Shown here piece by piece: positions 1 through 36,600 of a DNA stretch of 64,000 nucleotides (the stretch's first letter is position 1; each line of letters begins with the position of its first letter). Origin of the DNA: Telopea speciosissima (Eukaryota; Streptophyta; Magnoliopsida; Proteales; Proteaceae); NCBI RefSeq assembly GCF_018873765.1, contig NC_057924.1, forward strand, positions 9,362,001 through 9,426,000. Direction: 5' to 3'. Position numbers and translations under genes: made by a program. Under the pieces are notes generated by a model. It did no database searches and was not told where the DNA came from. It was given only the letters and a program-made list of their open reading frames with translations.

Positions 1-103
1 GTGGGGTCTGGGGAGGGCCATAATGTATGCAGCCTTAACCCTGCTTTTGCAGAGAGGCTGTTTCCAGACTCGCCCCGTGACCACTTAGTCACAATGGAGA
101 AGA
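1..103 (-). mobile_element. Au-like SINE, truncated by the window start
   Basis: Read on the minus strand it has the tRNA-related head (B box complementary to 'ccagactcg' near base 66) followed by the characteristic Au SINE body around 'gcagccttaaccctgc'. The right duplicate copy at 32717-32854 shows the full element with its terminal T-run. Confidence 0.75.
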
Positions 104-1763: not shown

Positions 1764-1794
<31 letters not shown>

Positions 1795-3277: not shown

Positions 3278-4356
3278 CAAGAGTAACTGTGTACTATATC
3301 TCTCATATAGTGCCCCATTTCCATCGCAAGGGTGGAATGGAAGTGGTAGCTTTTTAGTGTGTATATTGTTACTTTATGGCCTTGTGGGTTGGTTGTAATG
3401 CCCCATCTGGGCCAGAATTTGTTACAGAACTTGAGAATTGTTGCCCTGAATGGCCTGATGGTCTTCCATCATTTAGTTAGGTGGAGTGAAATTATGCAAA
3501 CGTGAAGGGTGAAGTGACCCTTTTAACCTGTGTATATGCTACTACTTCAGTGTATGGTTTCATGATTCAGGGGATGGAAATGTTAACACTGAATTATTTT
3601 TCTCTTTTCTTTTTCAAAGAAAATTTCATTCCTTCTCATTTATTAATTTTGACAGTCAAGATTTTTTAATGTTATATGGGGAGGGTATTAATTGAATTAG
3701 GCTCTGAAATTGGACATGTGGTTAATTCGCGTCATGTAATATCTACTTCAAGGGTTTATCAACTCCTTCCAGTGTGGGATCTAGGGAGGGTCATAATGTA
3801 TGTAATCTTAATGGCGCTTTCGGGAGAGGCTGTTTCTTGAGATTCGAACCCGTAACTATTTGATCCGTTGCACCAAGGTACACCCTCATGTACGATCTAC
3901 TTAATAATTAAAATTGTCACAATTAAAATTGCCACGTCATCATTCCATGTCGCCCAATAAGGATGAGCAAGATGTGTAATACTACCTAAGAGGAAGTGAA
4001 TTTAATGGGAGAGATGGATTAGTGACTGGGGTGGACAATTGGACATAGGTGTGGTTGGGTGGGCTGGGAGAGCAACCTGTGGCCCTAAGCCTTTCTGAGG
4101 TCCAAGAAGGCAAAGCCCAAGTCCAACCCAACTTGACTCTGATTTCGATTGACCAGCCCAAAGGCAAGGGTGGGTTGAAAATTTGAAGCCCACAGTGGGG
4201 CTTAGCTTGTGGTCTTCATATCATTTTAAGAGATTATTTTCCCATTAATGGTTTTAACATATGTTATCAAAACAGTACTTGAACAACAGTGCCCTCATAT
4301 GATTTGCTTTAATTTAATCCGGTTTGACCCTTGTTGCCCTTTACATACTTGTTTGT
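3278..4356. other. 3' flank of left PLAC8 copy with an old SINE
   Basis: This holds the 3' UTR and downstream flank. The only element I recognise is an old Au-like SINE at about 3758-3890. The short open frames at 3982-4193 are not conserved in the right copy and match no family. Confidence 0.5.
3758..3890 (-). mobile_element. Old Au-like SINE
   Basis: On the minus strand the order is tRNA-like B box (complement of 'gattcgaaccc'), the sequence matching 'gagaggctgtttc', 'gggagggtcataatgta' and the 'ccagtg' end. It is more diverged than the SINE at base 1. The mate is at 37311-37445. Confidence 0.65.
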
Positions 4357-4600
4357 CTTTTTTTTTTTTTTTTTTTGGTAAGAGAAATTTTATAAAGGAT
4401 AACATGAGAAACTCATGGCTGAGATAAACAAAGATCTTGGAACCATAGATCGGAAATAGGCCACACCATCGTACACGTCATCGATAGGACCCTCCGTACC
4501 AGGGAGTTAGCCAAGTTGTTAATCTCCCTTGGAACATAAGTGATATATCCGTGGTTAAAATCCGTACTAATTTAAAACTTTGTGAATGTAACGTAGCTTG
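4357..4600 (-). mobile_element. LINE 3' end: RNase H tail plus poly(A)
   Basis: On the minus strand a frame reads ITYVPREINNLANSL followed by VRRVLSMTCTMVW, typical of the C-terminal RNase H (RVT_3) domain of plant LINE ORF2. It then ends in the common plant LINE tail KISLTKKKK, encoded just before the T run at about 4358-4378, which is the poly(A) of the inserted copy. A stop lies just upstream of the conserved part, so it is a dead 5'-truncated copy. The right duplicate has the same remnant (about 37935-38140), so the insertion predates the duplication. Confidence 0.75.
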
Positions 4601-5093
4601 GGCGGCCGCCTACACTATCAAACTATGGATCGCCACTGTCAAACCAACATTCAAGATCATTGACCGAGTGTCGGGAGATGTTGTCGAGGAAAGGTTCATA
4701 AATCCGACGTGGGGTAGATTTGTGGACTGTGGTAGATTCGTCGACTACCCGCCTTATGTTAGCGAGTGGACGGAAGCAAGTAGGAGAAGATACCTGAGAC
4801 CTGCTTTTGAGGATGATCCCCTTGTATCTATGTGTGAAGACTGCAAAGAAGAGAGGGGACTATTCCCAGCATTGTCTCCGGATGCGTGAGGTGAATTACT
4901 ATTCACATATTTTATATTTTAATATGAATAGTTACCTAAAACCTTTGGGCCTTTCTCCTTTAAAACCCGACCATGGGCCTAAGTGGGTCAAAAGGCCCAA
5001 TGATTTAGAATAGGACCTTAGGCTAATGCTCAGCCAAACAAGCCCCAACTAATTGGACCTAAGAACCTAAGACACAACCAAACATGCCCTAAT

Positions 5094-6719
5094 GGCCATA
5101 CGGAGAAAATAAGGCTTAGACCACTATTCACTCCACATTTTAGAATCCCCAAATCGATTTGTGAAAAAGAGAAAGAAAGGAAGGAGGGAACCACCTTAGC
5201 TCACCTTGCCTTGGTGAGTGCATCTTCCTTATTTTGATCCCTTCCCCTCCATCTATTTTCTTGGATTTGAATGTAGATGATGTCCTACCATTAATGGTGC
5301 CCCACCTACCTACATGGGAGAACCATTAGGGATGTAAATGGATAACCGAAATCCGAATCCGAATTCGCATCCGTATTCGTTTAGGGGCATCCGTATTCGT
5401 TTAGAGATATCCGGAAAATAATCCGAATACTCCGATTAAAATCCGTCCGAAAAAAAATCCGAATACTTAATAATAAAAAATTAAGTAAATAATGATTTCA
5501 AGGGTTTTTGAAGATTAAATAAGTTCTAGAATATGATGAAAAGAGAATCATGATCTAAGAGATATGGATTGAGAGTGGCCATACGGAGAAAATAAGGCTT
5601 AGACCACTATTCACTCCACATTTTAGAATCCCCAAATCGATTTGTGAAAAAGAGAAAGAAAGGAAGGAGGGAACCACCTTAGCTCACCTTGCCTTGGTGA
5701 GTGCATCTTCCTTATTTTGATCCCTTCCCCTCCATCTATTTTCTTGGATTTGAATGTAGATGATGTCCTACCATTAATGGTGCCCCACCTACCTACATGG
5801 GAGAACCATTAGGGATGTAAATGGATAACCGAAATCCGAATCCGAATTCGCATCCGTATTCGTTTAGGGGCATCCGTATTCGTTTAGAGATATCCGGAAA
5901 ATAATCCGAATACTCGATTAAAATCCGTCCGAAAAAAATCCGAATACTTAATAATAAAAATTAAGTAAATAATGATTTCAAGGGTTTTGAAGATTAAATA
6001 AGTTCTAGAATATGATGAAAAGAGAATCATGATCTAAGAGATATGGATTGAGAGTGGCCATACGGAGAAAATAAGGCTTAGACCACTATTCACTCCACAT
6101 TTTAGAATCCCCAAATCGATTTGTGAAAAAGAGAAAGAAAGGAAGGAGGGAACCACCTTAGCTCACCTTGCCTTGGTGAGTGCATCTTCCTTATTTTGAT
6201 CCCTTCCCCTCCATCTATTTTCTTGGATTTGAATGTAGATGATGTCCTACCATTAATGGTGCCCCACCTACCTACATGGGAGAACCATTAGGGATGTAAA
6301 TGGATAACGAAATCCGAATCCGAATTCGCATCCGTATTCGTTTAGGGGCATCCGTATTCGTTTAGAGATATCGGAAAATAATCCGAATACTCCGATTAAA
6401 ATCCGTCGAAAAAATCCGAATACTTAATAATAAAAAATTAAGTAAATAATGATTTCAAGGGTTTTTGAAGATTAAATAAGTTCTAGAATATGATGAAAAG
6501 AGAATCATGATCTAAGAGATATGGATTGAGAGTGGCCATACGGAGAAAATAAGGCTTAGACCACTATTCACTCCACATTTTAGAATCCCCAAATCGATTT
6601 GTGAAAAAGAGAAAGAAAGGAAGGAGGGAACCACCTTAGCTCACCTTGCCTTGGTGAGTGCATCTTCCTTATTTTGATCCCTTCCCCTCCATCTATTTTC
6701 TTGGATTTGAATGTAGATG
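5094..6719 (+). repeat. Tandem array of about 480-bp units, 3.4 copies
   Basis: The marker 'ggccatacggagaaaata' recurs at 5094, 5577, 6056 and 6534, giving periods of 483, 479 and 478 bp; the last copy stops at about 6719. Units differ by a few single-base indels. Each full unit contains a roughly 245-bp insert that begins 'agggatgtaaatggata' and is rich in 'ccgaatccg'. The right duplicate (38735-38965) has one unit without that insert, so the insertion and amplification happened in the left copy after the duplication. Confidence 0.92.
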
Positions 6720-12653: not shown

Positions 12654-14329
12654 TAAAGTTAATAAATCCACATATTATACTCATAAAATATGCGGATCCT
12701 AACGTTTAATTGAATAGTTAGATAAATACGTGAATATGAAAGGGTGATGTATTATACACATGTAAAATGCAGATTATAGGCGTATAATATGTTTAGTTAA
12801 AAAATAAAAAATAAAAATAAAAAACTAAAATCTAAAACCGAATTAACCAAACCCGAGCCCATCCAAACCCTCGTCCCTCTCTTCGAGAAGTGAAAGCCCT
12901 GGTTATCACTTCTTTTGCCGGCGGCGATTCGGTGACTGTGGTTCTTCAGGCCGGCGATTGCAGCAGCTTAAGGTATTTTCCTGGTTGTAACTTCTTCTCC
13001 ATCTCTTCTTCCTCCCCTGATTTTTGAATTGGAAAACCCTTTCCCCTCCCCTTCCTGATTTTTGAATGGAGATATCCTTTCCTCTCCCCTGATTCGACTG
13101 TGGTACCAAAAAAAAATGAGTTTGAGTTTTTAAAATCTACTGTGGAACTTCTAGCTAGTGGTTTGAACTTTGAAGATACCCTCCTCTTTGTCGTCATTCT
13201 GTTGATAGTAAGAATAATCTTATATTCTGATAGTCTACTAAGTATCTCAGTTTTAGAAATTCTCTGGTATTCTAGTGGGAGAATTCAGTCATTGGCCTTA
13301 TTTAATGGGTCTATATAAATAACATTAGATCCAGAAGGAAAACACGAGCTGTACTAATGAATTAGACCAAAAAAAAAACAAAAAAACAAAAAAAACAAAA
13401 ACAAAAAAAAACTTATCGATCTTTAGGGTTGTCCAACACCAATTTCTACAAGCTGATTGATTTATTGATTTCAATCACAATGACTGTAGTCATTTCCATT
13501 ATTGGTTATTACCACAAGATAGTCAGTGCAATGTAATTATTATCTAATTTTGAATTCCAGTCTGGCCATTTCAATTTCCTGCAAGTAGCCCATCTGGGGC
13601 ATCATAAATTATATGTCTTCTACAGGCAATGGGGATCTCATACATGTAGTGCAGTTGCAAAGTGGATCCTAATTACAATTGACAGCAAATATGCCTATAT
13701 CCCTATTTGCTGTCAATTGTGAATTGTAGTATAGATGTTAATATCCCTAGTGGATGTTAACACTTAACAGGGATGTTAACACTTAACAACCTATCCAAGT
13801 TTCAAACCTATTGTTAAACTTGTTACAACGTAATGATAATGGAAATTCAATTTAGAAACTATATATCATATAAATGGGTTAATATATAAACCAGAGTTTG
13901 GTTATTCTTTCATTTCAGCTATTATTATTGGACTTTAAGATGGATATGATCAATATTCATTAAGATTGTAATGTGGTAGTCTATCTAATTCCTTTCAATC
14001 ATCCCTTTTGATTGGTCATTCTAAGTTCTACAATGAAGAATGAACCCAATCTAGGCTTGGTAAATGGTAACCAATCAAACTATATATTTAGGCACATTAG
14101 TAAATGCTATTATTGTGTTTATTAGGTGTACATGCCTATTGCATTGTGAATATATGCCCGTAATTTTGCTCCCAGATTTTTACAGAGCAACCGTATTAAA
14201 CACATACCGTCATTGCCGTATGCGTTTTATTGAGCCGGATTTTTGAAAAGTATTATTACCATACATCCCGTTTGATTTCCGTACGTATCCGTTCCCGTAT
14301 TATTGTCGTTCCCGAACTTACTAACTATG
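12654..14329 (+). mobile_element. hAT-like non-autonomous element A, 8-bp target duplication
   Basis: It is flanked by the perfect 8-bp repeat GTTCCGAA (12646-12653 and 14330-14337). The right end '...acttactaactatg' is the inverted form of the CATAGTTAGTA end of element B (23265-24540); the left end is eroded ('taaagttaata'). The interior is homologous to B in inverted orientation: the 'tatacacatgtaaaa' region, a GC-rich block at 12840-13110, and a segment at 14064-14329. No hAT transposase is visible. Eight-bp duplications and this end type fit the hAT superfamily. Confidence 0.8.
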
Positions 14330-14337
14330 GTTCCGAA

Positions 14338-15151
14338 TGGACTAGATCCGAATACCAAAACCCGGGTTTGAGAAAATCTAATAACGCGTTTGGTTGCATG
14401 CATCTTTGGATGTTAAATCCTCATAATCACGATTCTGTATTTTTAAAACCGTTTGGTTGGTTATTTCTGCTGATGCACACAAATCCTTAGATTCAACATT
14501 TTACACCAAAAGGCTGAATCTCAAGATTTTACTTCATGAGGTAAAATCCAGAGATTCTTGAGGCTGATTCTTGAGATTCACATATTATCGGGAGCCCAAG
14601 AGACCAAGTCGAAACTCAGCGAAGCTCCATCTTCAACCTCTGCAATATCGTCGGTGCTCCAAGAATCGCTCACCGGATCTGCCTCTCTCCTTGAACGTCA
14701 CTCTTGCCCGGCGCTCCTCTGCAATATCACTGGAAGAATCTCTCTCTCACAACTCCTGGAAGAAGATCTTGGCTGGAGGATCTAGGGTTTGGAAATCAGG
14801 TATTCAGATCTCTCTCTCTCTCTCCCTCTCCCCCTGTGCACGTGTCTTGACGTCTTTCTTTCTGGCATTCTCTGCCCCCCACCTTTTTTTGGAGTGATTC
14901 TTGGAACTTTGCTCCCCCCTCTCTCTCTGTACCCTCTGGTCTCTGACGAGAGTTCTAGATGTTGTTTTATGCCGTTTTTTAGGCTTTATATCACGAGGTT
15001 ATTTGCTCTGTTTTTATGCGGTTTGAAGGTCATGCTCTGCAATGACCTATTGTGTTTAGTTCCTTTTATTTTCCAGTTTTAAGTTAGTTCTTTTTTGGTA
15101 CATGTCATTCACCTATTCGTTAGAGACGAATGTTTTCAAGCCGAGGAGAGC
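14338..15151. other. Repeat-derived sequence, no confident gene
   Basis: This holds a CT-rich tract (14805-14840) and overlapping short frames at 14558-15082 that match no family. The tail around 15100-15150 reads like the C-terminal end and polypurine tract (ccgaggagag) of a + strand LTR retrotransposon. Confidence 0.45.
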
Positions 15152-15640
15152 TGATGCAGATTTGAAGACCTAACACAAGAGAAACAAGAGAGGCCAAGCT
15201 TAGGCACATGGCCTATTGTGTTTAGTTCCTTTTATTTTCCAGTTTGAAGTTAGTTCTTTATGTTTTGTTATGCTTTAAGTTGTTTTCGGCTAGATGAACA
15301 ATGGTCCAATTTAAGTCATGGTTCAATTTTTTGGTTCAATTTAAGTTAAGTTTCTTTTGTTTGCTTTTAAGTTGGGTCCACTTCACTTTTAAAGTCAACA
15401 TAGGCTAGTAGACTTCAAAAGGGATAGTGTTATGTACTGTTGGAGTCGACTAAGGTGCCTCCTTCTATAGACTCGGTTTTCATTTTAAAAAACTGCTGCT
15501 GATGCTGCTGTTCTTCTCTTTCTTGTGTGAAGAAGCTCCTTTTGATTGGTCAAGGATCCTACAAGTTTGCCATTATACTTTTAATTTGAGTTAGTTATTA
15601 TTTTTGTGAGCTTATAACAATCTTAAAGCAGGGTTTTGTG
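15152..15640 (+). mobile_element. LTR fragment of a + strand retrotransposon
   Basis: It starts 'tgatgcagatttgaagacc' directly after a purine-rich tract, like the TGATGCAG ends of the LTRs at 16073 and 20972 on the other strand. A 50-bp segment ('cctattgtgtttagttcc') at 15043 is repeated at 15209. The right boundary is uncertain. Confidence 0.45.
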
Positions 15641-16073
15641 ACCCCGAATTACTTTAAGAATTCACTCTTCCACTAAGAAATTCATCTTGGCACTGCCAAG
15701 CACACCATAAATGCACAAGATAGAGAAAACTTGAAGTTTCATTGCTAAATAACTCAAGCTCATATTACTGAACATATATAGACTCGTAAAAGCCGACTCC
15801 AAACACGCCTACCGTGTGAGCCTATTCTAACTAAATCTCCAACTTATACTTACTAATAATGTAAATCCTTGTATTTCTAACTCGCACCCTTATTTTGCCC
15901 ATTAAAGTGACATTTTACAATGAAAACCCATTGGACCAAAGGCCTAACATATAGAATCCAACTTCCCAATCCAATGCTTATTTCCATTTCCTGAACCATT
16001 TCCCCCCTTGTTGAATTAAAAATTCTTGTGTTTTTGAAGTGATGTAGAATCAGAACCACATGATCAAGCATCA
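15641..16073 (-). mobile_element. Older LTR retrotransposon, 3' LTR
   Basis: On the minus strand it begins TGATGC at 16073 right after a purine tract (AATGGGAAAAT). It aligns loosely with 20973-21694: 'gcaagatagagaaaac', 'ttcattgctaa', 'attaaagtg', 'aaaggcc'. Lower boundary approximate. Confidence 0.55.
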
Positions 16074-17282
16074 ATTTTCCCATTTATGTTTGATGGAGGC
16101 AATATACGGTCCACAGATAGTAGGTAGGCAAATAACAATTCTTGGACCATTCTCGTCGAGAAAGTGATGAGGTATCATGAACTCAATAATCTCTTCGAAA
16201 ATAGGAACATCATCTTGAGTGTTCATGCCTTATTGCCTTTGGTTATCATTCTTTAAGTCGTTCTCGGTCATGACTTCATCTTTCATGTAATGGAATCGAA
16301 ATCAACTTTAATAACTTCTTCATTTATTGGATCAGCAACCTGACAACCTCTTTATTATCAATAAGAATTTCTGATTGTTGATTTTTTTTCCCATTGCCTC
16401 ATTTCTATCTTCATTATGTGCTCTGACTTTTCATGGCTTTCTTCAACTTTATCTTCAACTTTGGGCTCTAGCTCTTGAGAGAAAGGAACATATACTGCCT
16501 TGAAAAGGATTTGGTTTTCAATTTGAATCATTGTTTCCTGTACAATCTGTCTCTCCTCTACCTGTCCACGCTCTGCATCAATTTGTGTGAGCGAATTCTA
16601 TCTTCCTTTATTAGATCTTTTGAAGGAGTTGAATCTACTAACATCTGAACATTCTCTTTGATGATTTTCTTCTTTTGTCCTTGTGATTGTGTAATGTTGA
16701 GCTGAAGCGATGAGATTTCTATTGTTAGACATGCAAGTTGCAACTTTCTCCAACTTGAGAACTGAACTTTATAGGTGGCTGCTTTAAATTCTCTTCAGCC
16801 CTGAAGGCCTCTTGGTAATAATCTTCTCAAAGGGAGAACTTTCTATGGATAATTATCTAGGCCTCTTTAACTCAGCTTCATCTTTTCCCAAGTCCTAGGC
16901 TCATTTCTTCCAACTCTAGGCCTCGTTTCATGGATTCCCCACCATTCTTTAGCTTGGCCAGTTGATCGCATGCAAACCGACAAAGTTTCCTCTCTTCTAT
17001 CAAGTCATACCAATCAAAATATTCCTCTAGAGAAGCTAGCCAATCGAAGAACAACTGTGGGTCCATCTATATAGTAAAGTTAGCAACTTTTGGCTTCACC
17101 TTCTTTGAATTATTATGAGTCCTCCTATAGTAAGTGTTGTTTTTAGATGTAATCTCTTTGCTGTTTTAGAGCATTAACTGGTTAATAGTGACTTGAAGGT
17201 CTCCAGTGTTGCCATGGTTTTCATAGGCTCCATTGCCACCATTAGTATCTTTGTTGCTCGTCATAGTTCTGATACTAAATAA
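16074..17282 (-). mobile_element. Older LTR retrotransposon, internal region with gag remnant
   Basis: A degenerate primer-binding site TAGTATCAGAAC sits at 17277-17266, close to the tRNA-Met-type TGGTATCAGAGC. An ATG at 17264 opens a frame (MTSNKDTNGGNG...) broken by stops. At 17066-16878 a piece reads MDPQLFFDWLASLEEYFDWY, which resembles the start of a Ty3/gypsy-type gag domain. No protease, reverse transcriptase or integrase is present before the 3' LTR, so the copy is internally deleted or from a non-autonomous family. Confidence 0.65.
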
Positions 17283-17545
17283 TGTATTTACCAGTCCCAA
17301 GCTTGATACTAGAGACTAATTTGTAAGACCGAATCTCCAGAAAATAGAGCACAAGCAAAAATTAATAGAGAGCTAATTGCACAGAACGGAACTAGAACCA
17401 GAAATTCCAGAATAGAAGCTTTATAGAGAAAATTAATAAGTAACAGAGTGATAATCGGATGGACCTAATAGCCTGGTCTAGTGGACCATTAGGGAGGTCT
17501 ACTTGCTGAAAATTTTTGTTGATATTCAATGAACAGACCAAATTA

Positions 17546-18723
17546 TGTAGCCCTAGATAGGTAGGAGACCTACTAGGAGCCAAACAACAGGATCAAATAA
17601 CAAAAGGGGCTGCTGGTTCGAATGGACAGCACTAGGATTTAGGTCAATTCCTAGGGTTTGGGTTGGATATTGGGAAAGGGGTTTATAGGGTATTAATGGG
17701 CAGGTCTAGGGGGTCAATATGGTATAAAAATAATAGGATTTGGGAAGGTTTTAAAATTCTGCAGTTCTGGACAGAATTGTGTTGCAGGTTTTGGGTTTTA
17801 ATGGAGTGAAGGAATGGAGGGGATAAAGTGGAGACTAAGGGCTAGGGCTAAGGTCGAATGTGGGGATTGATGTGGGGAATATAAGTTGGAAGTAGGGTTC
17901 GAAAGTGATGGCTAAAACTGGAGTTATGGGGGAGTCCTAGTGGAGGTAGGAGTGCAGGTTTAATGGAGAATTAGGGTTTGATGGATGGTGGGGGACTGTG
18001 GATTAGGTCTAAGGGAAGATGAAGGATGATAGAAGAAGGTTTAAAATAAGAAAATAGGTTCAAACTCACTGTATTGCAGGAACAATGGCAGCAGCTTGAT
18101 GATTTGAAAGAGCCTCCCGATCTTCACAATGCAAGGAGTCGCAGGAGTCCACCTACCCTTCACCACCTTGAGATCCACAAGGATATACACTCACAAAGAG
18201 CAGCAGCAATGGCAGCAAGCATAAAGCTAATTTTTATTAATCAAATTCGTATGTAATGCTGGCCTCCCTTACAAACTTATATAGAAGACTCAAAAATAGA
18301 CTTAGACACTAAAAAGGAATGGCCTAACCCTATCCCTAACCTATTAGGTAATTTAAACTGACTAGGAAACTAGAATACTAAAGGAAATAGACTCAAAACA
18401 TGGCTAGACTTATAGAGTCCTAATCCAGCCCAACTTACATCACATGACTACTGAAGTTGTCACATGACCACTTAACCAAGTCACATGATCACTTAAATCG
18501 AACCAATTGGATGCAACCAATTTGAACCGGTTCAATTAAAAAACATAAAAATAAACTAAGTATTGGGCTAATCCCGTATGCAACCTATATACCCATATTT
18601 TAGGCCCATAAAAGTGGCCTATTACATTAGAAACTCATAGGATCAAAGGCCCAACATGTATGTAACTCAACCCTAGACTTATTTCCAATGAAACAAGCCC
18701 TATTTGGTGATGAATCTGCATCA
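17546..18723 (-). repeat. 3' LTR of the young element
   Basis: Starts TGATGCAG at 18723 on the minus strand and ends TACA at 17546. It differs from the other LTR by scattered substitutions only. The ORF reads about 30 codons into it. Confidence 0.9.
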
Positions 18724-19777
18724 ACTCTCCCCAACTTGAAAAAATTTGTCCTCGAATTTTGTAGTGATGAAGGGGAATCAACATGTGATCAGCAGCTTTG
18801 ACCATCCCCAAACTGAATTCCGGTGAAGCAGGGACATTAGGGATAAAATCTCCAAGGCGTGGAGCTTTCTGTTCGAAGAACCATGGTGGCATAACAAACT
18901 CTATGTGTTCGTTTTCTAAATTAGCAGCAACTGTGAATGTCCTGTCCATAGAGTCTTCAGTGTTAGCAACCTTCGCATCTAATACTTGAGACACAAGCTC
19001 CACCTCTTCAAAAACAGCATCTTCAATGCCAATAATTTCTTGTGGAGTGCTCTCAACCACCTCTTCATCTTCTGCTGTGTCAGCTTTTTCTACTTTGCTC
19101 TTTGCAGTGTAGACCTCTTTAGTAGTTTCTTCTACCATTGTGTTTTGGACCTCCACATCAATTTGATGGCTGAGCTTCTCAACCATAATCTTAACTACTG
19201 GTACAGCTTGGTCTACTTGAATTTCTTTAGCTATAGGTTCTTGAATCTCTTCAACACAAACCGCCTTAGTAGAAGCTTCTGTTGGTACATCTGCCATTGG
19301 TGAAGCTTTAAGCACAATCGCTGCCACTTGCGTTGGAGTTGATACATTTGGCATTCCCTGTGGCTGTACAATCGATGTGGTCACCTTTGGTTGTAACCCT
19401 TCTAGAGCAAAACAATGGTATAGACGGTGTCGATCAGGTAGGACACAAGAGTTGTTTTCAGGTTCAATCCAACCTTGTCGCGTGTCCAACCAATCACCAC
19501 CTACTGCAATAAAGCTCTTTAGATGTGGTACCGGCTGACACCAAGCACCATTATAGTATGAAGAACACCCAAATTCAACAAAGACTTTACCTGTAGGCAT
19601 GATGCAAATCTCTCTTGATTGGGACAACATATCCACCACGGATTGTGAAATAATGTTGTTACGTCGCCTCTCATCAACAACTAATATGGTTGTGCTCCCA
19701 TTGGGTAGACGAACTCGGGTCTTGAAAACGAAGGGAGGTGGATCTTTCGAGGCTTGGTTGGAGCTTCCCTCCGCCAT
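18635..19777 (-). CDS. 380-aa protein of a short LTR retrotransposon, function unknown
   Basis: The ATG at 19777 lies one base past the primer-binding site, so it is the first possible start of the element's transcript. The stop is inside the 3' LTR. No gag zinc knuckle, reverse transcriptase, RNase H or integrase motif is visible. Residues about 19-58 (FKTRVRLPNGSTTILVVDER, then RRNNIISQSVVDMLSQ) are spaced like a retropepsin-type segment in which VLIDSGATHNFIS is typical, but the catalytic D-S/T-G is replaced by D-E-R; this is inference from pattern only. Residues 60-130 are rich in aromatic and Cys residues (FGCSSYYNGAWCQPVPH, GGDWLDTRQGW). Residues 150-290 are acidic and low in hydrophobic clusters, probably disordered. 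The last part (from about residue 340) is encoded by the polypurine region and LTR. The frame is intact over 1143 bp in an element with nearly identical LTRs, which suggests recent mobility or selection. Confidence 0.8.
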   Translation of the reverse strand: MAEGSSNQASKDPPPFVFKTRVRLPNGSTTILVVDERRRNNIISQSVVDMLSQSREICIMPTGKVFVEFGCSSYYNGAWCQPVPHLKSFIAVGGDWLDTRQGWIEPENNSCVLPDRHRLYHCFALEGLQPKVTTSIVQPQGMPNVSTPTQVAAIVLKASPMADVPTEASTKAVCVEEIQEPIAKEIQVDQAVPVVKIMVEKLSHQIDVEVQNTMVEETTKEVYTAKSKVEKADTAEDEEVVESTPQEIIGIEDAVFEEVELVSQVLDAKVANTEDSMDRTFTVAANLENEHIEFVMPPWFFEQKAPRLGDFIPNVPASPEFSLGMVKAADHMLIPLHHYKIRGQIFSSWGELMQIHHQIGLVSLEISLGLSYIHVGPLIL

Positions 19778-19778
19778 A

Positions 19779-19790
19779 GCTCTGATACCA
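19779..19790 (-). other. Primer-binding site (tRNA-Met type)
   Basis: Minus-strand sequence TGGTATCAGAGC, five bases after the LTR end, the standard plant LTR-retrotransposon primer site for initiator methionine tRNA. Confidence 0.9.
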
Positions 19791-19795
19791 AATTA

Positions 19796-20972
19796 TGTAG
19801 TCCTAGATAGGTAGGAGACCTACTAAGAGCCAAACAACAGGATCAAATAACAAAAGGGGCTGCTGGTTCGAATGGACAACACTAGGATTTAGGTCAATTC
19901 CTAGGGTTTGGGTTGGATATTGGGAAAGGGGTTTATAGGGTATTAATGGGCAGGTCTAGGGGGTCAATATGGTATAAAAATAATAGGATTTGGGAAGGTT
20001 TTAAAATTCTGCAGTTCTGGACAGAATTGTGTTGCAGGTTTTGGGTTTTAATGGAGTGAAGGAATGGAGGGGATAAAGTGGAGACTAAGGGCTAGGGTTA
20101 AGGTCGAATGTGGGGATTGGTGTGGGGAATATAAGCTGGAAGTAGGGTTCGAAAGTGATGGCTAAAACTGGAGTTACGGGGGAGTCCTAGTGGAGGTAGG
20201 AGTGCAGGTTTAATGGAGAATTAGGGTTTGATGGATGGAGGGGACTGTGGATTAGGTCTAAGGGAAGATGAAGGATGATAGAAGAAGGTTTAAAATAAGA
20301 AAACAGGTTCAAAGTCACTGTATTGCAAGAACAATGGCAGCAGCTTGATGATTTGAAAGAGCCTCCCGATCTTCACAATGCAAGGAGTCGCAGGAGTCCA
20401 CCTACCCTTCACCACCTTGAGATCCACAAGGATATACACTCACAAAGAGCAGCAGCAATGGCAGCAAGCATAAAGCTAATTTTTATTAATCAAATTCGTA
20501 TGTAATGCTGGCCTCCCTCACAAACTTGTATAGAAGACTCAAAAATAGACTTAGACATTAAAAAGGAATGACCTAACCCTATCCCTAACCTATTAGGTAA
20601 TTTAAACTAACTAAGAAACTAGAATACTAAAGGAAATAGACTCAAAACATGGTTAGACTTATAGAGTCCTAATCCAGCCCAACTTACATCACATGACCAC
20701 TTAAGTTGTCACATGTCCACTTAACCAAGTCACATGATCACTTAAATTGAACCAATTGGATGCAACCAATTTGAACCAGTTCAATTAAAAAACATAAAAA
20801 TAAACTAAGTATTGGGCTAATCCCGTATGCAACCTATATACCCATATTTTAGGCCCATAAAAGTGGCCTATTACATTAGAAACCCATGGGATCAAGGACC
20901 CAACATGTATGTAACCCAATCCTCGACTTATTCCCACTGAAACAAACCCTATTTGGTGATGAATCTGCATCA
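19796..20972 (-). repeat. 5' LTR of the young element
   Basis: Minus-strand 5' LTR, TGATGCAG at 20972 to TACA at 19796. It is near identical to 17546-18723. Confidence 0.9.
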
Positions 20973-21694
20973 TCAGGGCTCAACTAAAGAAACTTGTGGG
21001 TTAACCTTTTGGGATTGGTGTGCGGTTTGTGTGATTACACTTTCATAAAAAATAAAAAATAAAAACTAAAGAAACTTGTGTAACTAGGATTCTAGTGACT
21101 AGTCCAGCGACTAGAAAAATTAGAATTTGAAGACAATAATTGAATTTTATCAACTGAATTGCAGAGAACAACTAACATAAAAATTAGATATTGAATTTTA
21201 GGCTAATTAGAAAACAAGGAATCAAAAATACCAATGTAAAGCTAGCTGAAAACTAGAAGCCAGAACAGAATAATTGAAGAAGATGTGATTAAAAATCCAC
21301 CTTAGCACTGCTGAAAATCCATCCAAGCTAATCCACAATGTAGAGAAAACCAAAGCTTCATTGCTAATATAAGTCATTTATATTTTATATATATATATAC
21401 TCAAAATCTGACTCTTTTCATGACTAGAAATAGCCTAAACCAACTAGTAATCAAAATTGCTACATAATTGAACAATAATAGACTTAAAACTACTCTTACT
21501 CTAACTAGGACTCCAACTTAAACTAATTAATAAAGTAAATTCCATATTCCTAACTCCTAACCTTATTTTAAGCTTATTAAAGTGGCCCATTACACTAAAA
21601 CTCATTGCATCAAAGGCCCAACATGTATAGAACTCAATGGAAGGCTTATTCCCACTAAAGTAAGCCCACTTCTGTGATTTTCCTGCATCACATG

Positions 21695-22065
21695 TTGTCT
21701 TACCAAACTTGGTGTTTATATAATCAATGATACAAATATGTGGGTAGAGTTACCCCTTCTTTTAAGTAGTGTTTTCTCTTGGTTGGATATAAGCCTGCTC
21801 CTAAACCAAAGCCACAAAGAGTGAGTGAGTGAGCATCTGTGTGCGCACTGAGAAAGAGAGAGAGAGAAGCTGATGGTTTTAACATGTATATAGTTTTTAT
21901 CTGTAAAAGAAGATTCCTGGTTTATTGTTTCATCTGCTTTTGGTATTCAAGAATTGACTCTGTTTCTTGTGTTCAGCTGGTATGCTGAGTAGATGCTGGA
22001 AGGGTGAGACTCATGAATTTTGATCTTAAATTTTGATACAGGCACCATTTGAGATTTGCTGAAGA
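21695..22065 (+). promoter_or_regulatory. Upstream region and 5' leader of the plastid-protein gene
   Basis: This contains a short GA run (21852-21869) and several GT/AG-like positions that could mark a leader intron, e.g. 'cagctggtatgctgag' at 21975. No certain TATA box. Confidence 0.35.
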
Positions 22066-25000
22066 ATGAGCTCTTTAGGACTTGCTGCCTGTGGGCCCCA
22101 TAAGCAAGTCATAAATATTTCTTCTTCATGCTGCCTACCTGCTTCACGGCCATGCTTCTCACCAATCTATGCTATTCGAACTACTCGGAGTTGCCCAAGA
22201 CTTGCTTTTAATGCATCCAGCTATCGGAGATCTATGCCAGTTTGCTTGTTTGGTGGCAAAGAAAATCCAGGGAAAGACAATGAGGTGAGGTGCTTTTCTG
22301 AAATTCTCTCTGTTTGTTAGGGTTGTCCTCCAAGATGAGGAAAAAATCGTTTTGGTGGGAAATATGTCATTTTGGCTGCCTCCAACTTGTGCTTAAACTT
22401 AAATGGCCCACATGCAAGCCAACTACTTAATATCAGTTAGTATCCCATATTGAATCCAACACTGCCAACCAGGCCTGATTCTGGCAGATACCTGCCAATA
22501 GTTGAGGGAACCTCCATGGTAGTATTCTTTATCAGCTGGATCAGTGCTGGGCCCGCCTGTTCCAATCCTGATACTTGAATCCATGATTGAATTAACCTTA
22601 CCTTCCCAAATACAGACAATTTCGTTGACCCGTTTTCTTTTACTCTTTATGAAAGAAAGGAAGAGATTGAGGGGTTAGTTTCATCCAACAAAGTCAGATT
22701 TTCATTGTTATTGCCCTAGAATATCAGGAAACTAACTGGTTCACATTAATGATGAAAAAAAAAGGGAAACTTAACTTATACATGTTCATGGGGAAAAAAA
22801 TGTTGGGACTTGCTAACTGTTAATAATTTGACATCTCAGAATGAGGAAGATTTTTTTTTCCTTTATATTAAATGGTGAATGTATCTTCCATTTCTAGGAT
22901 GTTTTGGGCCTTTCACTTCCTGAAGGCAATATTTCTGCGCCTGTGTTTCAAAATTAAAGCAAGTGATCACACTAATGATTTAAGTTCAAAGTAATCCTAG
23001 TATAGGAATTGTAATATTCTGTTGAGAGGATATCTTGGGTATTTTTCAGGAAATTTAGATAAAACAGTGCTTTTTTACTTCTATGTTCTTCTGTGGTGAA
23101 GATGCAATAGGGTTTGATCAACCTGAAGGTTGATGACCTTAACTATCTGATGTATTAACTATTACAATTACTTCTGTGATTGTTTGGTTTAATCTTTTAC
23201 TGCCTTGAGAATGAGAGATTGTGAATATTCCCACATTTCTTCGCTGCATTGAATGTGTCCTATCCATAGTTAGTAAGTTTGGGAACGGCAATAATACGGG
23301 AACGGATACGTACGGCAGTCAAATGGACTGTACGGCAATAATGCTTTTCAAAAAATCCGGTGCAATAAAACGGTACAGCAATAATACGGTACGTGTTTAA
23401 TATGATTGCTCTGTAAAAATCTGGGAGCAAAAATACGGGCATATATTCACTATGCAACAGGCATATACACCTAATAAACACAATAATAACATTTACTGAT
23501 GTGCCTAAATATGTAGTTTGATTCATCATCATTGAGAAATTTACTCCAATAGGTTCATAAAGACTTCCACCGAATCATGCTATATTAGACTCTTTGCCTC
23601 AAACTTCAAAAATAGATAAATCCTTTTGGAATTTGATTCTCTGTTTTTGGAAATGACAGCCCAAAACAGGATCTTAGGTAACTAGAATAGATAACTGAAA
23701 AGAACTTTCTTCTCAATGGTGTATGTGTGTGTTTCAATGGGAAGAAAAATCTTCGCTTTGGGCTGTCATTCTCCTCAATATAAGAATAGCTCGGCTTGAC
23801 TGTAACAAATGTTTAGTACGTTTGAGCTTTAGATTATAATTCTTCTGAATCAACATATATACCCATTAAAGAGGAAAGAAAATGACTAAAATTTTAAGGT
23901 AACAAATGGCTGAGAAACATTAATGAATGTGCCTAAGGGGATGACTGCTTACTAAAGAACGTAAAGGATTGGGAGGTGACTTGAGATTTGAGAGTGGTCT
24001 TTTGGCCTGTGAAGATCAAGAAACCCAGACAATGAACAAGTTTCTGCAATGCAAAGAGTAGACGATCATGATGAAACCCAGTAACATGGGGGGAACAAGA
24101 AATGGAGGTTAGAAGTCATTGAGAGTGAGAAAGTATTTACCGCTGCAATAGCCAGCGGAAGAAGCACAGTTGCCGGAAGAAGAAGAGGAAGAAGAGACGG
24201 AGAAGCACAGTCGCCGCTCAGCCACTGGGGGTTTGGTGACCAAACAGTTTGGCCTTTCTTTTCCCCGAGATGTGAGGGACGAGGGTTTGGTAAGTGGTAA
24301 CTTTGGTTTGGTAATCTAATGGTTAGATTGGATTTTAAGTTTTTTTTATTTTTTTTATAACTAATCGTATTATTCACATATAATACGTGTTTTATACGTG
24401 TATAATATTTTGACCCTTATAATCTGCGTATTTATCCGACTCTGAAGTATTATATGCAATACGGCACTTTTTCCAATTAAACATTCGGATACACGTATAG
24501 TATGCATATTATACGCGTATATAGTTATATACTAACTATGGTCCTATCTACTTGTCTATAATATGTTGAAGCTGTAAACTAACGAGTAACCATGAAGATA
24601 GATAGGGCCTCTTAGTACATGTCTCTGGGACCTTGAAGTTTTCTCCTTTCTGTTGTTGTGGAGTTTTCAGATTGCACATTAATCATGATAGTTATTGCAG
24701 CTGTACAATAAGAAGTTATCATGATTACAGATAGCCCTTCCGATACAGTTCTCTAGGTCCTTAAAATTGTCCTCCTTCCTTAATAGTTACATATCTCTGT
24801 CTGTTGCCATATAGTTTGGATAGTGTGCAACATTTCAAAGTTGTCCAAACCATCCAGCTAAAACATCAGATAGTTGAGAATCTTTTACTGCCTTGATTGA
24901 TCAGCTTGACTTTAAAGCAGAAGAGATTTTTGTGGTGGTTCCATTGACTATGCTGTTGCATACATGGGACTGGTCAGTTTGTATGATAGAAGATGGTATT

Positions 25001-30616: not shown

Positions 30617-33600
30617 ATGATGGCGGATTCCGAGGAAAAGCCCATTAATGGAGTCGAAGAGAAAGGAGAGGATACATTCATGGAAGGAGTTACTGTGTTG
30701 GATTTTGATATGCTTTGTGCAACTGTGGCATTGCAGACGCAAGAGTTTTCGAAGGAGAAATGGGACAAATTGGAGGAAAACATCCATGGAAACGGTATGG
30801 AGATTGGTGGAGTCCAAAGGATGTGGGAAGGTGAAGTCCTTGATTGCTTCGTAGACCGTCGAATCGCCATCGAAACGGCTTGGTTAGCTTTTCCTTTTCT
30901 CTCTGTCCTCTTCTTTTTGTTTTTCTTCCTCGTTTTCTATTTTCTCTCGCACATATGTTTTTTAGCAATTCGTGCTCGGCTCGTCTTGTTTTTGTGTTTT
31001 CTATCTTCGTCGCTCTCCCACCTCCTCGTCTTCTCTCTTCTGTGGATTATTTTGGGAGAAGGGGAGAAGAGAGCTGTTCTGTTTTTGAAGGCCATTTTGA
31101 TTATGGGGGCTAGGATTTCAGTGATAGGGTTTATTTCCCCTAGTAATTGAAATTGAGGTAATTTTTCCTCTCGTATCCATTCCCTTTTCAAGGAATAAAC
31201 TTGTGAAGGAGGAACCTTGTGATTTTGGAAGTCAGGAAGTGGCTTTCGTTCTCGCGCTTTATGCCGCATATATGGCAACAAAGATCTAATTTTTCCAAGC
31301 CAGAATTGCCCTCTCTAAGGCACCTATCTTTGACACAACAGTGTTGACGACTTCTCTGTCTACCCAGGAACGAGGATTTCGGTGAACAAATGAATACCAT
31401 GTTGTGACACATTTACGTAGAACTTTGCACTGTTAATCTTCTTATGTTGTTATAATTGTTTTCCACAGTTGATGGTATATTTTGATCTTGCAGCTGCCCA
31501 TGCTACAGATTCGGGAAGAACATGGGAAGAGCTGGTTTTGGTTGTGGTTTTATTCATGTAAATATATTCTCTTTGAACCCATATGATTGTTTCTTTTCCT
31601 TATTCTTTTTCCAATTTTGTAATTTCAGGAAGTTAAAGTATTTGGACCTAATTCCGTATTATTAGAGCCATGTGTATGCATAGGATCAATCTTCTAGGAA
31701 ATGGAGTGCAAGAATTTGACATATGTTGTATCCTATCCATTTTCTGTATCACTATCTGAAAGTGGGGCCCTGACTCCCACCTAGACATGATATATGGGTC
31801 TGTGAATTGTCAAACTGGTTCCAGTTTATTTCAAGTCAGTCAACCTAGGTCAACTAATATCCAACTGACTAATTTTTTAATTTTCTCAGCCACATACTGC
31901 CCTCACTTTATTCAGTCTGAATCATCTTATCTTTCAGAGTGTTTCTCGTGGTCCATATGGCTATTGTTCTTAACATACAAATCCAAGTTATTGTTGCAGT
32001 GGGTCAACTCTTTTTCTTTGGGGTCTGGTTAGTATCGGTGCTATAAAAATTGTCATTACAAGCACCATAAAATATATAATTTGAAATTGCACTAATCGGA
32101 GAAACTAAAATCTTTTACCAGAAATACTAGTACATGTTGTTCTTGAACAAATAGTGAATTAGTTTTGCCTTTGGCAGGGAGCTGTTTATTTTGTTCTTGC
32201 CGTCACTGCTCTTCTCAACTTGATTGCCTTTGCTGTCACCATGCGGCGCTGCTTTCTGTATTTGGTACTTGCTTTCATAATTTTGGCTGGAACATATTTG
32301 GGTTTCTTCCGTACACAGATCAGGAAACAGTTCCACATCAGGGTAAGCATTGGTATCCATAAATACATCCTTTTTTATATATTTATTTTAGTTTACAATC
32401 TATATGACACAACTTAGTGCTGATTGAGCTGAGGAGTTTTTCTATTTGTGCTTCATTGGTTTCTTTTCCAATATTATTCCATATGCCATGGATTCAGTTA
32501 TAGTAATTTCTCAGATGGTTTTCCAATTGTTTAATTGAAAATGTGCATGCATAACTCTGGATTGATTATAGCTCATAACTTCAGTTGATGATCCTCACAG
32601 ATGTTGAAGCCAGGAATTATCTCACATCTGCTGGGGGCTTGAAAAGTATACTAACACTCTTGATAACGTATCATTGGAAGCTTTTCACACACACACACCC
32701 AAAAAAATTAATAAATAAAAAAAAAGGTGTACCCAGTGCACGAGGCTCCCGCCACTGCGGGGTTTGTGGAGGGCCATAATGTATGCAGCCTTACCCTTGC
32801 TTTTGCAGAGAGGCTGTTTCCAGACTCGAACCCGTGATCACTTGGTCACAATGGAGAAGAAGAAGAGCAAATGAAAATTAATACCATTGGAAGAGCAAAT
32901 GAAAAGAAATAATTAGTTTGTTTTTGAGTAATTATGGGAACGTGGTTCTTTCCCACATCCTTTGGGACATCTAATATTTGGTACCCTTTTTATCTTTTTA
33001 CTTTACACTGGACTTCAATTTAAATATTCCTAGAGATTTTTTTCATCCACTAAAGTTGCAATTTGATTTTCTTTTCCCTGCTACCCAGAGGAACACGATC
33101 CCAAGCCAACTGGTGATAACCACGAAATACCTCCCAGATTACTTCTTAAAGCACCCATGGTTTCAACATTACCCTAACCCATCTCAATGCTCTCTTCCAA
33201 CTTCCACCCACCTCTTTCATTTTTTTTTTTGGGGGTGGGGGGGGGGGGGTTGATCTATTGTTTGTATACCTTAGATAGGCTGTATTCATCAAACAAAAAA
33301 TGACGATTATATATACGCTGCTGCTGCTCCATAATTTCAGCTCTATTCTTGGTGTCAATGTCTTTATATTCCAACACCAAGCCCCTTGGCCCTTAAATGA
33401 CTGCAGGTTGACAGTTATGATACTTTGATACTTCCAACTGCTTAGCATACATGATATAAAACAATGCAGTAGAACTTGGTTTTGCATGAATGTTAAAACT
33501 TCCAGTCTGGTGTTATATATTTTTATTATCAATATAAGAACTGCCATTGTTTCTTCAACTAGTATTATATACATGCTGAAATGACTCTGACTGAAAGTTT

Positions 33601-36600
33601 TCCAAACGTTGGTTCTGTTGAAAGGGAAGACTAGATTAGTGCCATGTGCATTGGGTGAGCAGCCAAACTCATTTAATGTGTGTGGCATTAGCAGTGTACT
33701 TCTTGAAATTGTGGGTGTTTTAAATATTGAAAAGAGATAGGTAGCTCTGAAAGCCCAAAGATGGCAATAACTCATATAAGTATTGCATGCTGAATTTCAA
33801 GTAATGGGTATCTGAATGCCATCCTCACTACTGTCGATATGAGTGTATATATCTGGCTTCGTAGGGTGTGAAAGTAGCGATTTATTTGTTTGTTTTGCCT
33901 TGCCAAATGGTTTCTCCGAAACAAATGAAGTTTTAGCTTGGGAGTGACCAGCATTTCTTTGAGATGTTTACTTGCAGTTGTTGTTTCACTACTAAGGGAG
34001 TATTAGATGAATAACCTTAAAAGATCTTGTGGGTTGTTTAATCTTACCTGTCTGACCTCTAAAGCTCATTTAATTGCAACCATCTTCGCTCTTAAGGTAT
34101 GAGCTACACTATTAGGGACGGTAAAGAAAAAAGCCAATTAATGTTTCCTGGGTCTCGCAGAGTTGTAGAGACCTCAGGCCTGCTAAGAATTAATCTTAAA
34201 GGAAGAAGATGAAGCTCTAAGATTCTTATATCTGAATGCTCGCTTGCTCAAGCTTCCTAGATGCCGATTTTACTGGAATTGCATCATATTAGGAAATCAT
34301 TGGAATATACATTTCACAGCTTGAAATCTTGGATAAAAGTCTTCCCACCATTTCTGAGCTTATTTTGCTCTGTTTAATCTACATCTTAGCACCTTTTCCA
34401 TTGCTATTTAGCATGTAACTTCATATCTGTGTTATATTTTCTGTCCATCTCCAAGGCTAGCACAATGTGGTTTTTGGCAGTTCTACAATCCATTTTGTCA
34501 TCCGAGTCTGATGTTAGACTACTCATTGCCAATGAAATGAGTCTTCTTTTAACCTACAACTAGGTCATGTAAAGAACTTGCTCTAATCATCGCTGTTCAC
34601 ATATGCTGATACTATTGGTTTCATCCGCAAATAACAATGAACTGACAAAGAACAAAATCTGCTAGGGGACTGGGAGCAGCAGCGATGTGGTGCTGCATGC
34701 ATGGCTGGATCTGGGGATTATAGTGGGTCCCATTGTGAACTGATAGAACTTACTGTAGTCATTGCTGTTCAAATTGCATGAAATATGCTGATACTTTATT
34801 GGTTTCATCCGCAAATAATATTGAACTGACAAAGAACAAAATCTTCTAGGATGTCTTTGGTATCAATTCTTGAAAACCATTCTTGCTTTTCCTCAAAAAG
34901 AGATTTTAGAATGGTTTCTGAGTTGGAAAGAAATGGTTTGGCTACATGAGAAAAAGAGAAGTAATACCCTTTCCCTCAACCGTGCCAAAAAGATAAAAAA
35001 GAAGAAGAAATATTCCTATCTAACATATTCTAACATATCCATGATAGAAATCCTAATCTGATGGTGTTGAGAACCATGCTAAAGATGGTTGCTTGACTCG
35101 ACTAAAATGTTCCTAAGACCAAAAGAAACTCAAACACTACATGTGGCGATAAAGATGGTTCAGCCAGGAGAGAAAGTGACTCAAACAAGGCCAAAGACAA
35201 AGATACTCATGTGGGGAGTGACTGACTCAGACACTACACGCAGGATGCAGTCGCTGCCTGAGAGAGAGAGAGAAGGGGGAAGAAGGGACAGAGAGATTTG
35301 TAGAGACAAATAGGGCATGGGAAGCCGTGAATTGCCTGTATACGGTGGGATACCTGTGCATACTGTCATTATTTTCTAAATTTCTTCACTACTTGCATGG
35401 ACATCTCACTGAGAATTGCACCAATAGTTCGAACATTATGGTTAAGTATTTTTCCTGATGCTTAAAACATCTGTATTGTGACTTACTAAGAAATTGGCTA
35501 GCAGAGATGTCTCTCCCATGTCATGCTGTTGTAATCTAATTGCTTCAATTTATCTATATATTTATTTTGTTATGTCGGTTGGTTATCTCGCACTTAACAC
35601 TGATATTCTTCTTGTTTTGCAGGGTAGCGACAGTTGTTTGGATGACTGTGTCAACCATCTGATCTGCCCCTGTTGCACATTATGCCAGGTTTTTATCTGT
35701 CTCATACATCTCTTTTTTTTGTTTAGTAAGGATCTGTCTCATACATCTCAACTTAAATAAAAATGGAGGATCTGTCTTATACATCTCAACTTAAGTAATA
35801 ATGGGAATTGGGGATCCTGCAGGATGGAATTGTCTTTTTTGTTTGATTGGTAGGCCCTAAGGAGAGTTGAACTTATGACCTCTTTATGGTGAGGTGTTGG
35901 TCCTTGCCAGCTAAGCTACCTCTTGGGGTAAAAATAAAATTCTTTTTCGTGGACAGCAGGGTTTGAACTTGCACAGCCTACATGATTTCTACTCATGCCT
36001 GATAACCACTCTGGAACGTCCACTCATACAGAATGGAATGACAGAGTACAACTTATTACCTCTTTATTGTGAGGTGTTTGGACTTACCAACTGAGGTACC
36101 CCTGGAGTAAAAATAAAATTCTTTTTCGTGGACGGCAGGATTCGAACCTGCGCAGGCAGAGCCCACATGATTTCTAGTCATGCCCGATAACCACTCCGGC
36201 ACGTCCACTTATACAGGATGGAATGACAAAGAGTTGAACTTATTACCTCTTTATTGTGAGGTGTTGGTCCTTGCCATCTGAGTTACCCCTTGTAAAAATA
36301 AAATTCTTTATCGTGGATGGCAGGATTCAAACCTGTGCGGGCAGAGCCCACATGATTTCTAGTCATGCCCGATAACCACTCTGGCACGTCCACTTATACA
36401 GGCTGGAATTGTCATTGTCAATTTTGAATAGAAATGATGGAGCTTTCCTTTAGATAGAAAATAATCTGACATTCCTTTTTTTTTTTTTTTTTTTTTTTCT
36501 GGGAACAGGAGTCCAGAACATTAGAGATCAACAACGTTCAAGATGGCATCTGGCGAGGCCGAGGTGACACTATATGCATTGGCAGCTATGGCGAAGGGAG

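What the first reader, a model, noticed from the sequence alone, without database searches (positions are those of the whole stretch)
18635..19777. Intact ORF of unknown family in a short, recent LTR retrotransposon
The element has everything a plant LTR element needs in cis (LTRs, tRNA-Met primer site, polypurine tract) but encodes only one 380-aa protein that is not recognisable gag or pol. The start codon lies one base after the primer site. The region at residues about 19-58 is laid out like a retropepsin segment (hydrophobic strand, V-V-D-x-x, then N-x-I-I-S-x-x-V-V-D-x-L) but with D-E-R in place of the catalytic D-S/T-G. An intact 1.1-kb frame next to almost identical LTRs suggests it matters for mobility, perhaps as a packaging or gag-substitute protein. 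This is the best candidate for an undescribed system here.
Basis: partly seen in the sequence, partly recalled or inferred. Interest (0 to 1): 0.72.

Follow-up and report, generated by a model that had tools for sequence, protein, structure and literature searches.

The report
Gag-less retrotransposon with one orphan protein
This is a short, fairly young plant-type LTR retrotransposon that carries one intact reading frame of unknown family where the usual gag and pol genes would be, a kind of element already described in wheat, with no evidence yet that the protein does anything new.

Summary
On the minus strand lies a 3.4-kb LTR element: LTRs 20972-19796 and 18723-17546 (97.2% identical, not "almost identical"), tRNA-Met-type primer site, purine tract and one 380-aa ORF. 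The ORF is not chance (0 of 1000 shuffles) and has no credible Pfam, NCBIfam, PHROG or PDB match. Its last ~29 residues lie in the 3' LTR. The retropepsin layout is motif-level only: the catalytic D-S/T-G is absent, and no profile or fold search supports it.

New: (1) the element sits inside the 5' LTR of an older related element whose 3' internal region is homologous to the ORF's C-terminal part; (2) the ~720-nt R-U5 leader has one ATG where 9.7 are expected (0 of 1000 shuffles).

Best reading: a non-autonomous, probably Ty3/gypsy-type element mobilised in trans, with an orphan ORF in the gag position. Wheat RLG_Sabrina NA variants, in which GAG-Pro is replaced by unrelated short proteins (PMC9744471), are the same kind. 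The host genome could not be searched, so copy number and dN/dS are untested; a gag-substitute role is possible but unsupported.

The parts
19796..20972 (-). 5' LTR (1177 nt), TGATGCAG...CTACA; TATA-like TATACAA at LTR position 440, AATAAA at 485
19779..19790 (-). primer-binding site TGGTATCAGAGC (complement of the tRNA-Met 3' end, recalled), after a 5-nt spacer TAATT (19795-19791)
19796..20502 (-). R-U5 leader (start inferred ~30 nt after the TATA box), ATG-depleted: 1 observed, 9.7 expected over the 725 nt that also take in the primer site
18635..19777 (-). 380-aa orphan ORF, start codon one base after the primer site
   Evidence: no credible family
19466..19723 (-). ORF residues ~19-104, retropepsin-like layout (hydrophobic-D-E-R...N-I-I-S, then AVGGDWL), catalytic D-S/T-G absent
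   Evidence: pattern chosen post hoc; no profile or fold support
18908..19330 (-). ORF residues 150-290, acidic Glu/Val-rich stretch (D+E 23%, V 16%, pI 4.2)
18731..18925 (-). ORF residues 285-349, homologous to the 3' internal region of the neighbouring older element
   Evidence: tblastn E 1.6e-4, low-complexity filter and composition correction off; 0 of 300 shuffles for each of two segments
18724..18735 (-). polypurine tract GTTGGGGAGAGT next to the 3' LTR
17546..18723 (-). 3' LTR (1178 nt); its first 89 nt encode the last ~29 residues and the stop of the ORF; TATA box TATATAA
20973..21690 (-). start of the 5' LTR of an older related element (TGATGCAGGAAAATCAC...), interrupted by the young element; 172 nt at its start are 71-73% identical to the young LTRs
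17266..17536 (-). rest of the older 5' LTR and its decayed primer site TAGTATCAGAAC, again one base before an ATG (17264)
15999..17264 (-). decayed internal region of the older element: gag-like start (by eye only, not confirmed by Pfam), no RT, protease or CCHC motif, 3' part homologous to the ORF C-terminus (16193-16116 and 16065-15934, the latter running into the LTR)
   Evidence: Pfam negative
15678..15998 (-). 3' LTR remnant of the older element (start by eye)
   Evidence: old 5' part against old 3' part, 72-74% identity in two pieces

Best explanation
The feature is a non-autonomous (trans-mobilised) LTR retrotransposon, probably of Ty3/gypsy type. Shown: two LTRs, primer site, purine tract, a 1.07-kb internal region without zinc knuckle, active-protease or reverse-transcriptase motif, almost filled by one intact orphan ORF that starts where gag normally starts. 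Inferred: the full-length RNA is made from the LTR promoter; ribosomes scan an ATG-cleared leader of about 720 nt and start at the AUG one base after the primer site; the RNA is packaged, reverse-transcribed and integrated by proteins of an autonomous relative elsewhere in the genome. The 380-aa product is most likely a non-enzymatic, acidic accessory or passenger protein, built from an N-terminal part of unknown origin (possibly a dead retropepsin relic) and a 3' internal segment shared with an older relative. It is probably translated, but not shown to be needed for mobility.
For: Anatomy. No CCHC, [YF]xDD or hydrophobic-D-S/T-G in any frame of 15000-22000. ORF beyond chance with coding-like composition. 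Leader: ATG is the most depleted of 64 trinucleotides (1 against 9.7, z -3.4, 400 shuffles); 0 of 1000 shuffles as low, in both LTRs, while U3 (13 against 9.1) and the antisense strand (17 against 14.4) are not depleted; the 12 of 2532 overlapping 725-nt stretches of the window with at most one ATG all overlap the two LTRs. Homology of the C-terminal part with the older neighbour, which also keeps an ATG one base after its primer site. Precedents: a gag-only and an ORF-less copia element moved in Arabidopsis ddm1 (PMC8704663, passages); gag-pol-poor gypsy families are abundant in wheat (PMC9744471, sections 12 and 17).
Against: No second copy was seen, so that the ORF defines a mobile family is assumed. 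No integrase motif was searched; its absence is inferred from the short internal region and the ORF's lack of a Pfam match. The ATG-poor leader is a property of the LTR and may have been selected for gag translation in an autonomous relative; the older element's leader is not significantly depleted (4 against 7.3, 106 of 1000 shuffles as low), though it is decayed. There is no visible target-site duplication and the 3' junction is odd, so this copy may be a recombination product and its LTR divergence not a clean age; LTR differences are uneven (10 of 34 in the first 90 of 1178 columns, binomial P 1.6e-4, boundary chosen post hoc). The 5' LTR TATA box is changed (TATACAA against TATATAA). A DNA-level alignment of the ORF's 3' part with the older element shows no third-position excess (59/122, 50/120, 56/121 mismatches), against long-term protein constraint there. 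In the LTR-encoded tail 8 of 9 codons that differ between the LTRs are nonsynonymous, one of them the stop codon. The gypsy assignment (purine-tract context, gag-like start of the old element) rests on recall.
Confidence: 0.65

Rival explanations
1. The ORF is a 5' additional ORF of an autonomous gypsy family, and this copy is an internally deleted member that lost gag-pol but kept the 5' ORF and the 3' end.
For: In sunflower Tekay group 2, 500 of 523 elements carry a 5' additional ORF; such ORFs are composition-biased and showed no amino-acid similarity to those of grasses (PMC11728184, section 2.5 read). Position and composition here fit.
Against: The reading frame is continuous from the primer site to the 3' LTR, with no visible deletion scar; the old neighbour starts with a different text in the same place (N-terminal part not similar: 51, 80 and 197 of 300 shuffles at or above the observed score in the three frames).
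Confidence: 0.15
2. The protein is a gag substitute: a self-assembling or RNA-binding protein that packages the element's own RNA.
For: It sits in the gag position behind an ATG-poor leader. In wheat, RLG_Sabrina_NA5 and NA6 carry ORFs with 3D similarity to capsid-forming viral proteins in place of GAG-Pro (PMC9744471).
Against: No capsid family match and no CCHC knuckle; net charge -21.5, pI 4.9; single-sequence models are unusable (mean pLDDT 31.5 and 39.1), and Foldseek of the N-terminal model gives no match with E <= 0.001.
Confidence: 0.12
3. The N-terminal ~130 residues are a catalytically dead retropepsin relic left by deletion of gag and of reverse transcriptase-integrase from a gag-pol parent (compatible with the best explanation).
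For: Order and spacing of LVVDERRRNNIIS and AVGGDWL fit a retropepsin (family layout recalled). [quoted passage not shown]
Against: D-S/T-G absent; no Pfam, NCBIfam, PHROG or PDB-sequence match to a protease at E up to 10; no retropepsin among the 50 listed of 76 Foldseek matches of a low-confidence model.
Confidence: 0.3
4. The N-terminal part of the ORF is a captured fragment of a host gene.
For: Capture by plant LTR elements is common (672 rice and 1343 sorghum genes; PMC3726574 abstract).
Against: No credible Pfam family; the C-terminal part is homologous to an older LTR element. No host proteome was available to test the N-terminal part.
Confidence: 0.12

Closest known systems
RLG_Sabrina non-autonomous variants NA2-NA9 of wheat (PMC9744471, sections 12 and 17 read, other passages seen)
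   Same: Gypsy LTR elements lacking reverse transcriptase and integrase, in which the GAG-Pro region is replaced by unrelated segments coding for short proteins, four of them without homology to other wheat proteins; NA9 keeps a partial proteinase
   Different: The shorter Sabrina elements are 6.6-7.6 kb, each variant in several hundred copies; this one is 3.4 kb and seen once; no sequence comparison was possible
TR-GAG elements (PMC8704663, passages read)
   Same: Short LTR element with a single ORF, presumed to move in trans
   Different: Their single ORF is a GAG; here no gag is recognisable
5' additional ORFs of Tekay gypsy elements (PMC11728184, section 2.5 read)
   Same: Orphan, composition-biased ORF near the 5' end of the internal region
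   Different: Those elements also encode gag-pol; nuclear localisation, reported for them, was not tested here
Sense additional ORFs between pol and 3' LTR, including env-like ones (PMC7264820, parts 1 and 2 of 3 read)
   Same: Orphan ORF adjoining the 3' LTR in sense orientation
   Different: Those lie downstream of pol; here there is no pol

Membership tests
Non-autonomous LTR retrotransposon | Two LTRs, primer site and purine tract in order | tested here: met
Non-autonomous LTR retrotransposon | No reverse transcriptase, zinc-knuckle gag or active protease | tested here: met
   No [YF]xDD, CCHC or hydrophobic-D-S/T-G motif in any frame of 15000-22000; no credible Pfam match of the ORF
Non-autonomous LTR retrotransposon | No integrase | tested here: inconclusive
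   No integrase motif scan was run; the ORF filling the 1072-nt internal region has no Pfam match
Non-autonomous LTR retrotransposon | Target-site duplication | tested here: not met
   No matching flanks by inspection; the 3' LTR is followed by TAATTTGGT as on the primer-site side. A recombinant or aberrantly integrated copy can lack it
Non-autonomous LTR retrotransposon | Multiple copies sharing the structure | not testable with these tools
   The genome search unanswered 14 times; viral contigs and genome contigs, which are viral and prokaryotic, gave no relative
Ty3/gypsy superfamily | PR-RT-RH-INT gene order in the element or a close relative | not testable with these tools
   Neither this nor the older element shows an RT or protease motif; the gypsy assignment rests on recalled features of primer site, purine-tract context and gag-like start of the old element
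Retropepsin (clan AA) | Catalytic D-[ST]-G | tested here: not met
   D-E-R instead; PS00141-like pattern (recalled) absent
Retropepsin (clan AA) | Profile or fold match | tested here: not met
   the fold search used a model of pLDDT 39 and is weak evidence
Ty3/gypsy Gag | Capsid domain or CCHC knuckle | tested here: not met
   Pfam none; no CCHC
TR-GAG | Single ORF encoding GAG | tested here: not met
   as above
RLG_Sabrina-NA-like (GAG-Pro replaced by unrelated ORF) | Same LTR family also has members with GAG-Pro | tested here: inconclusive
   The older neighbour has a related LTR start (71-73% over 172 nt) and a gag-like start by eye, which Pfam did not confirm

The most novel reading that the evidence does not exclude
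A plant LTR element replaced its whole gag-pol with one protein made of a catalytically dead retropepsin fold fused to an acidic tail, translated through a selectively ATG-cleared leader, which serves in place of Gag (for instance by binding a helper's Gag or the RNA) and so lets a 3.4-kb element compete for a helper's particles.
Probability: 0.08. Interest if true: 0.6.

Novelty: new member of a known kind. Interest (0 to 1): 0.3.

Why it matters
Non-autonomous LTR elements that keep an intact, unrelated ORF in the gag position raise the question whether such ORFs are cargo, translation decoys or working parts of trans-mobilisation. This copy adds one concrete handle: the leader appears to be kept free of AUGs up to the ORF start. 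If the same holds across copies whose ORF differs, selection for translation of whatever follows the primer site could be tested directly from sequence.

Tried and rejected
Relatives by protein: whole ORF, N-terminal 130 aa and C-terminal 65 aa in viral contigs and the first two in genome contigs: no pattern match; in the others 16, 9, 47 and 30 stretches matched a pattern and none was confirmed by tblastn. The old gag-like piece in viral contigs (19 stretches, none confirmed) and in PDB sequences (none). A primer-site-plus-ATG DNA pattern in viral contigs: 0. Weak hits, all below curated cut-offs or at chance level and not used: Flagellin_C 0.25 and 0.11, CRC_subunit 0.047 and 0.044, tRNA-Thr_ED 2.7, Nse4_C 0.029 for a piece of the old element, ribonuclease E 0.057 on the acidic stretch, PDZD8 0.24, Vegetative insecticidal protein 1.6, AcuB 1.5 and 1.6.

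Structure prediction without an alignment gave mean pLDDT 31.5 and 39.1; the Foldseek list has no match with E <= 0.001 and is not used as evidence of fold. Selection on the region shared with the old element: 37 codons chosen by amino-acid similarity give dN 0.44 and dS 1.87, but that choice is biased towards conserved residues, and the DNA-based alignment shows no third-position excess, so no constraint is claimed. Similarity of the ORF's residues 131-288, which hold the acidic stretch, to the old element was not significant (33, 124 and 135 of 300 shuffles at or above the observed score in the three frames). Rfam: none at gathering thresholds in 15000-24000.

Intact ORF as proof of function: rejected, because a neutral ORF escapes substitution stops with probability 0.58 at this LTR divergence.

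Full report
What is there. On the minus strand the window holds a complete LTR element: 5' LTR 20972-19796, spacer TAATT, primer site TGGTATCAGAGC (19790-19779), one base, then the ATG of a 380-aa ORF (19777-18635), a purine tract (18735-18724) and the 3' LTR 18723-17546. The LTRs differ by 33 substitutions and one gap column over 1177 compared sites (97.2% identity, K2P 0.0287). The internal region is only 1072 nt. The ORF passes through the purine tract and ends 89 nt inside the 3' LTR.

It is not chance. In 1000 dinucleotide shuffles of the region the longest open stretch in six frames averaged 95 codons and never exceeded 210, against 385 observed; G is 36% at codon position 1 and 14% at position 2. 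But intactness alone says little about function after insertion: with the LTR divergence as the neutral clock, 0.58 of simulated ORFs escape a stop by substitution, and about 0.5 indels are expected.

It is not recognisable gag or pol. Pfam, NCBIfam, PHROGs and PDB sequences give nothing credible at E up to 10. In all six frames of 15000-22000 there is no CCHC knuckle, no [YF]xDD and no hydrophobic-D-S/T-G; integrase motifs were not scanned. The retropepsin-like layout is real as a pattern: LVVDERRRNNIIS and, about 58 residues on from its aspartate, AVGGDWL. None of 20000 shuffles of the ORF has both, and 11 of 20000 have a stricter form of the first, but the patterns were written after seeing the ORF, and the catalytic triplet is missing. 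Models without an alignment are unusable, and the fold search of the N-terminal one gives no significant match.

Neighbourhood. The element lies inside an older, related element on the same strand. The older 5' LTR starts at 21690 (172 nt, 71-73% identical to the starts of the young LTRs), is interrupted at 20973/17545, and is followed by a decayed primer site and an ATG one base later (17264). Its internal region starts with a gag-like text by eye, which Pfam did not confirm, shows no RT or protease motif, and ends in a stretch homologous to the ORF's C-terminal part: two segments, each 0 of 300 shuffles (tblastn E 1.6e-4 with filters off). The N-terminal part (51, 80, 197 of 300 in the three frames) and residues 131-288 (33, 124, 135 of 300) have no significant similarity there. 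So the 3' end of the ORF is shared with the 3' internal region of an older LTR element, while the N-terminal part is of unknown origin.

Translation. A TATA-like box lies at LTR position 440 (TATATAA in the 3' LTR, TATACAA in the 5' LTR) and AATAAA at 485. From there to the ORF start, about 720 nt, there is one ATG (a 20-codon upstream ORF) where dinucleotide shuffles give 9.7; 0 of 1000 are as low, whereas U3 and the antisense strand are not depleted. ATG is the most depleted of the 64 trinucleotides, and the only 725-nt stretches of the window with at most one ATG (12 of 2532 overlapping windows) overlap the two LTRs. This supports scanning to the AUG at the primer site. It may have been selected for gag translation in a relative rather than for this ORF. 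The decayed older element's leader is not significantly depleted (4 against 7.3, 106 of 1000 shuffles as low).

Oddities. No target-site duplication is visible, and the 3' LTR is followed by TAATTTGGT, the same nine bases that follow the 5' LTR and reach into its primer site. An incompletely processed cDNA end or recombination with another copy would explain both (inference). LTR differences are uneven: 10 of 34 differing columns fall in the first 90 of 1178 (binomial P 1.6e-4, boundary chosen post hoc). In that stretch 8 of 9 changed codons are nonsynonymous, the stop codon included, so the LTR-encoded tail is not under visible protein constraint.

How it most likely works. A trans-mobilised non-autonomous element: its RNA carries the signals, an autonomous relative provides Gag, reverse transcriptase and integrase, and the orphan protein is translated from the gag position. 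All steps of mobility are inferred. Whether the protein helps is open. A structural RNA-packaging role would be expected to show basic or zinc-binding RNA contacts; no CCHC knuckle is present and the protein is acidic (pI 4.9, net charge -21.5). I therefore put a gag-substitute role at about 0.12 and an accessory or passenger role higher.

Comparison with the known. Wheat RLG_Sabrina includes at least seven variants, each in several hundred copies, in which GAG-Pro is replaced by unrelated segments encoding short proteins, four of them without homology to other wheat proteins, two resembling capsid-forming viral proteins, and NA9 with a partial proteinase (PMC9744471, sections 12 and 17). A TR-GAG copia element with a single ORF transposed in Arabidopsis ddm1 (PMC8704663, passages). 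Orphan 5' ORFs occur in Tekay elements (PMC11728184, section 2.5). The finding is a further member of this kind. In word searches of an open-access library I saw only the top-ranked titles and the starts of abstracts; none described this ORF, which does not exclude that it is in print.

Limits.

Noticed in passing
window 1-5328 and 32759-39147: A large duplication in the same orientation, in pieces of about 87-94% identity; both copies hold tRNA-Ser(AGA) predictions (2495-2576, 2680-2763; 36127-36208, 36312-36393).
   Followed up: no
window 5093-6719: Tandem repeat with a unit of about 480 bp, 99-100% identical between copies.
   Followed up: no
window 14073-14330 and 23264-23523: Inverted repeat of about 260 bp at 89% identity flanking the nested retroelement region.
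   Followed up: no
window 15125-15162, + strand: A purine tract plus LTR-start text (GGAGAGCTGATGCAGATT) on the opposite strand, apparently the end of a third gypsy-like element; 84% match over 38 nt to the young element.
   Followed up: partly
window 17537-17545: TAATTTGGT after the 3' LTR repeats the bases after the 5' LTR; no target-site duplication, suggesting aberrant end processing or recombination.
   Followed up: partly
window 17546-20972: LTR differences are clustered in U3 (22 of 34 in the first 470 columns), above all in the first 90 columns (10 of 34).
   Followed up: partly
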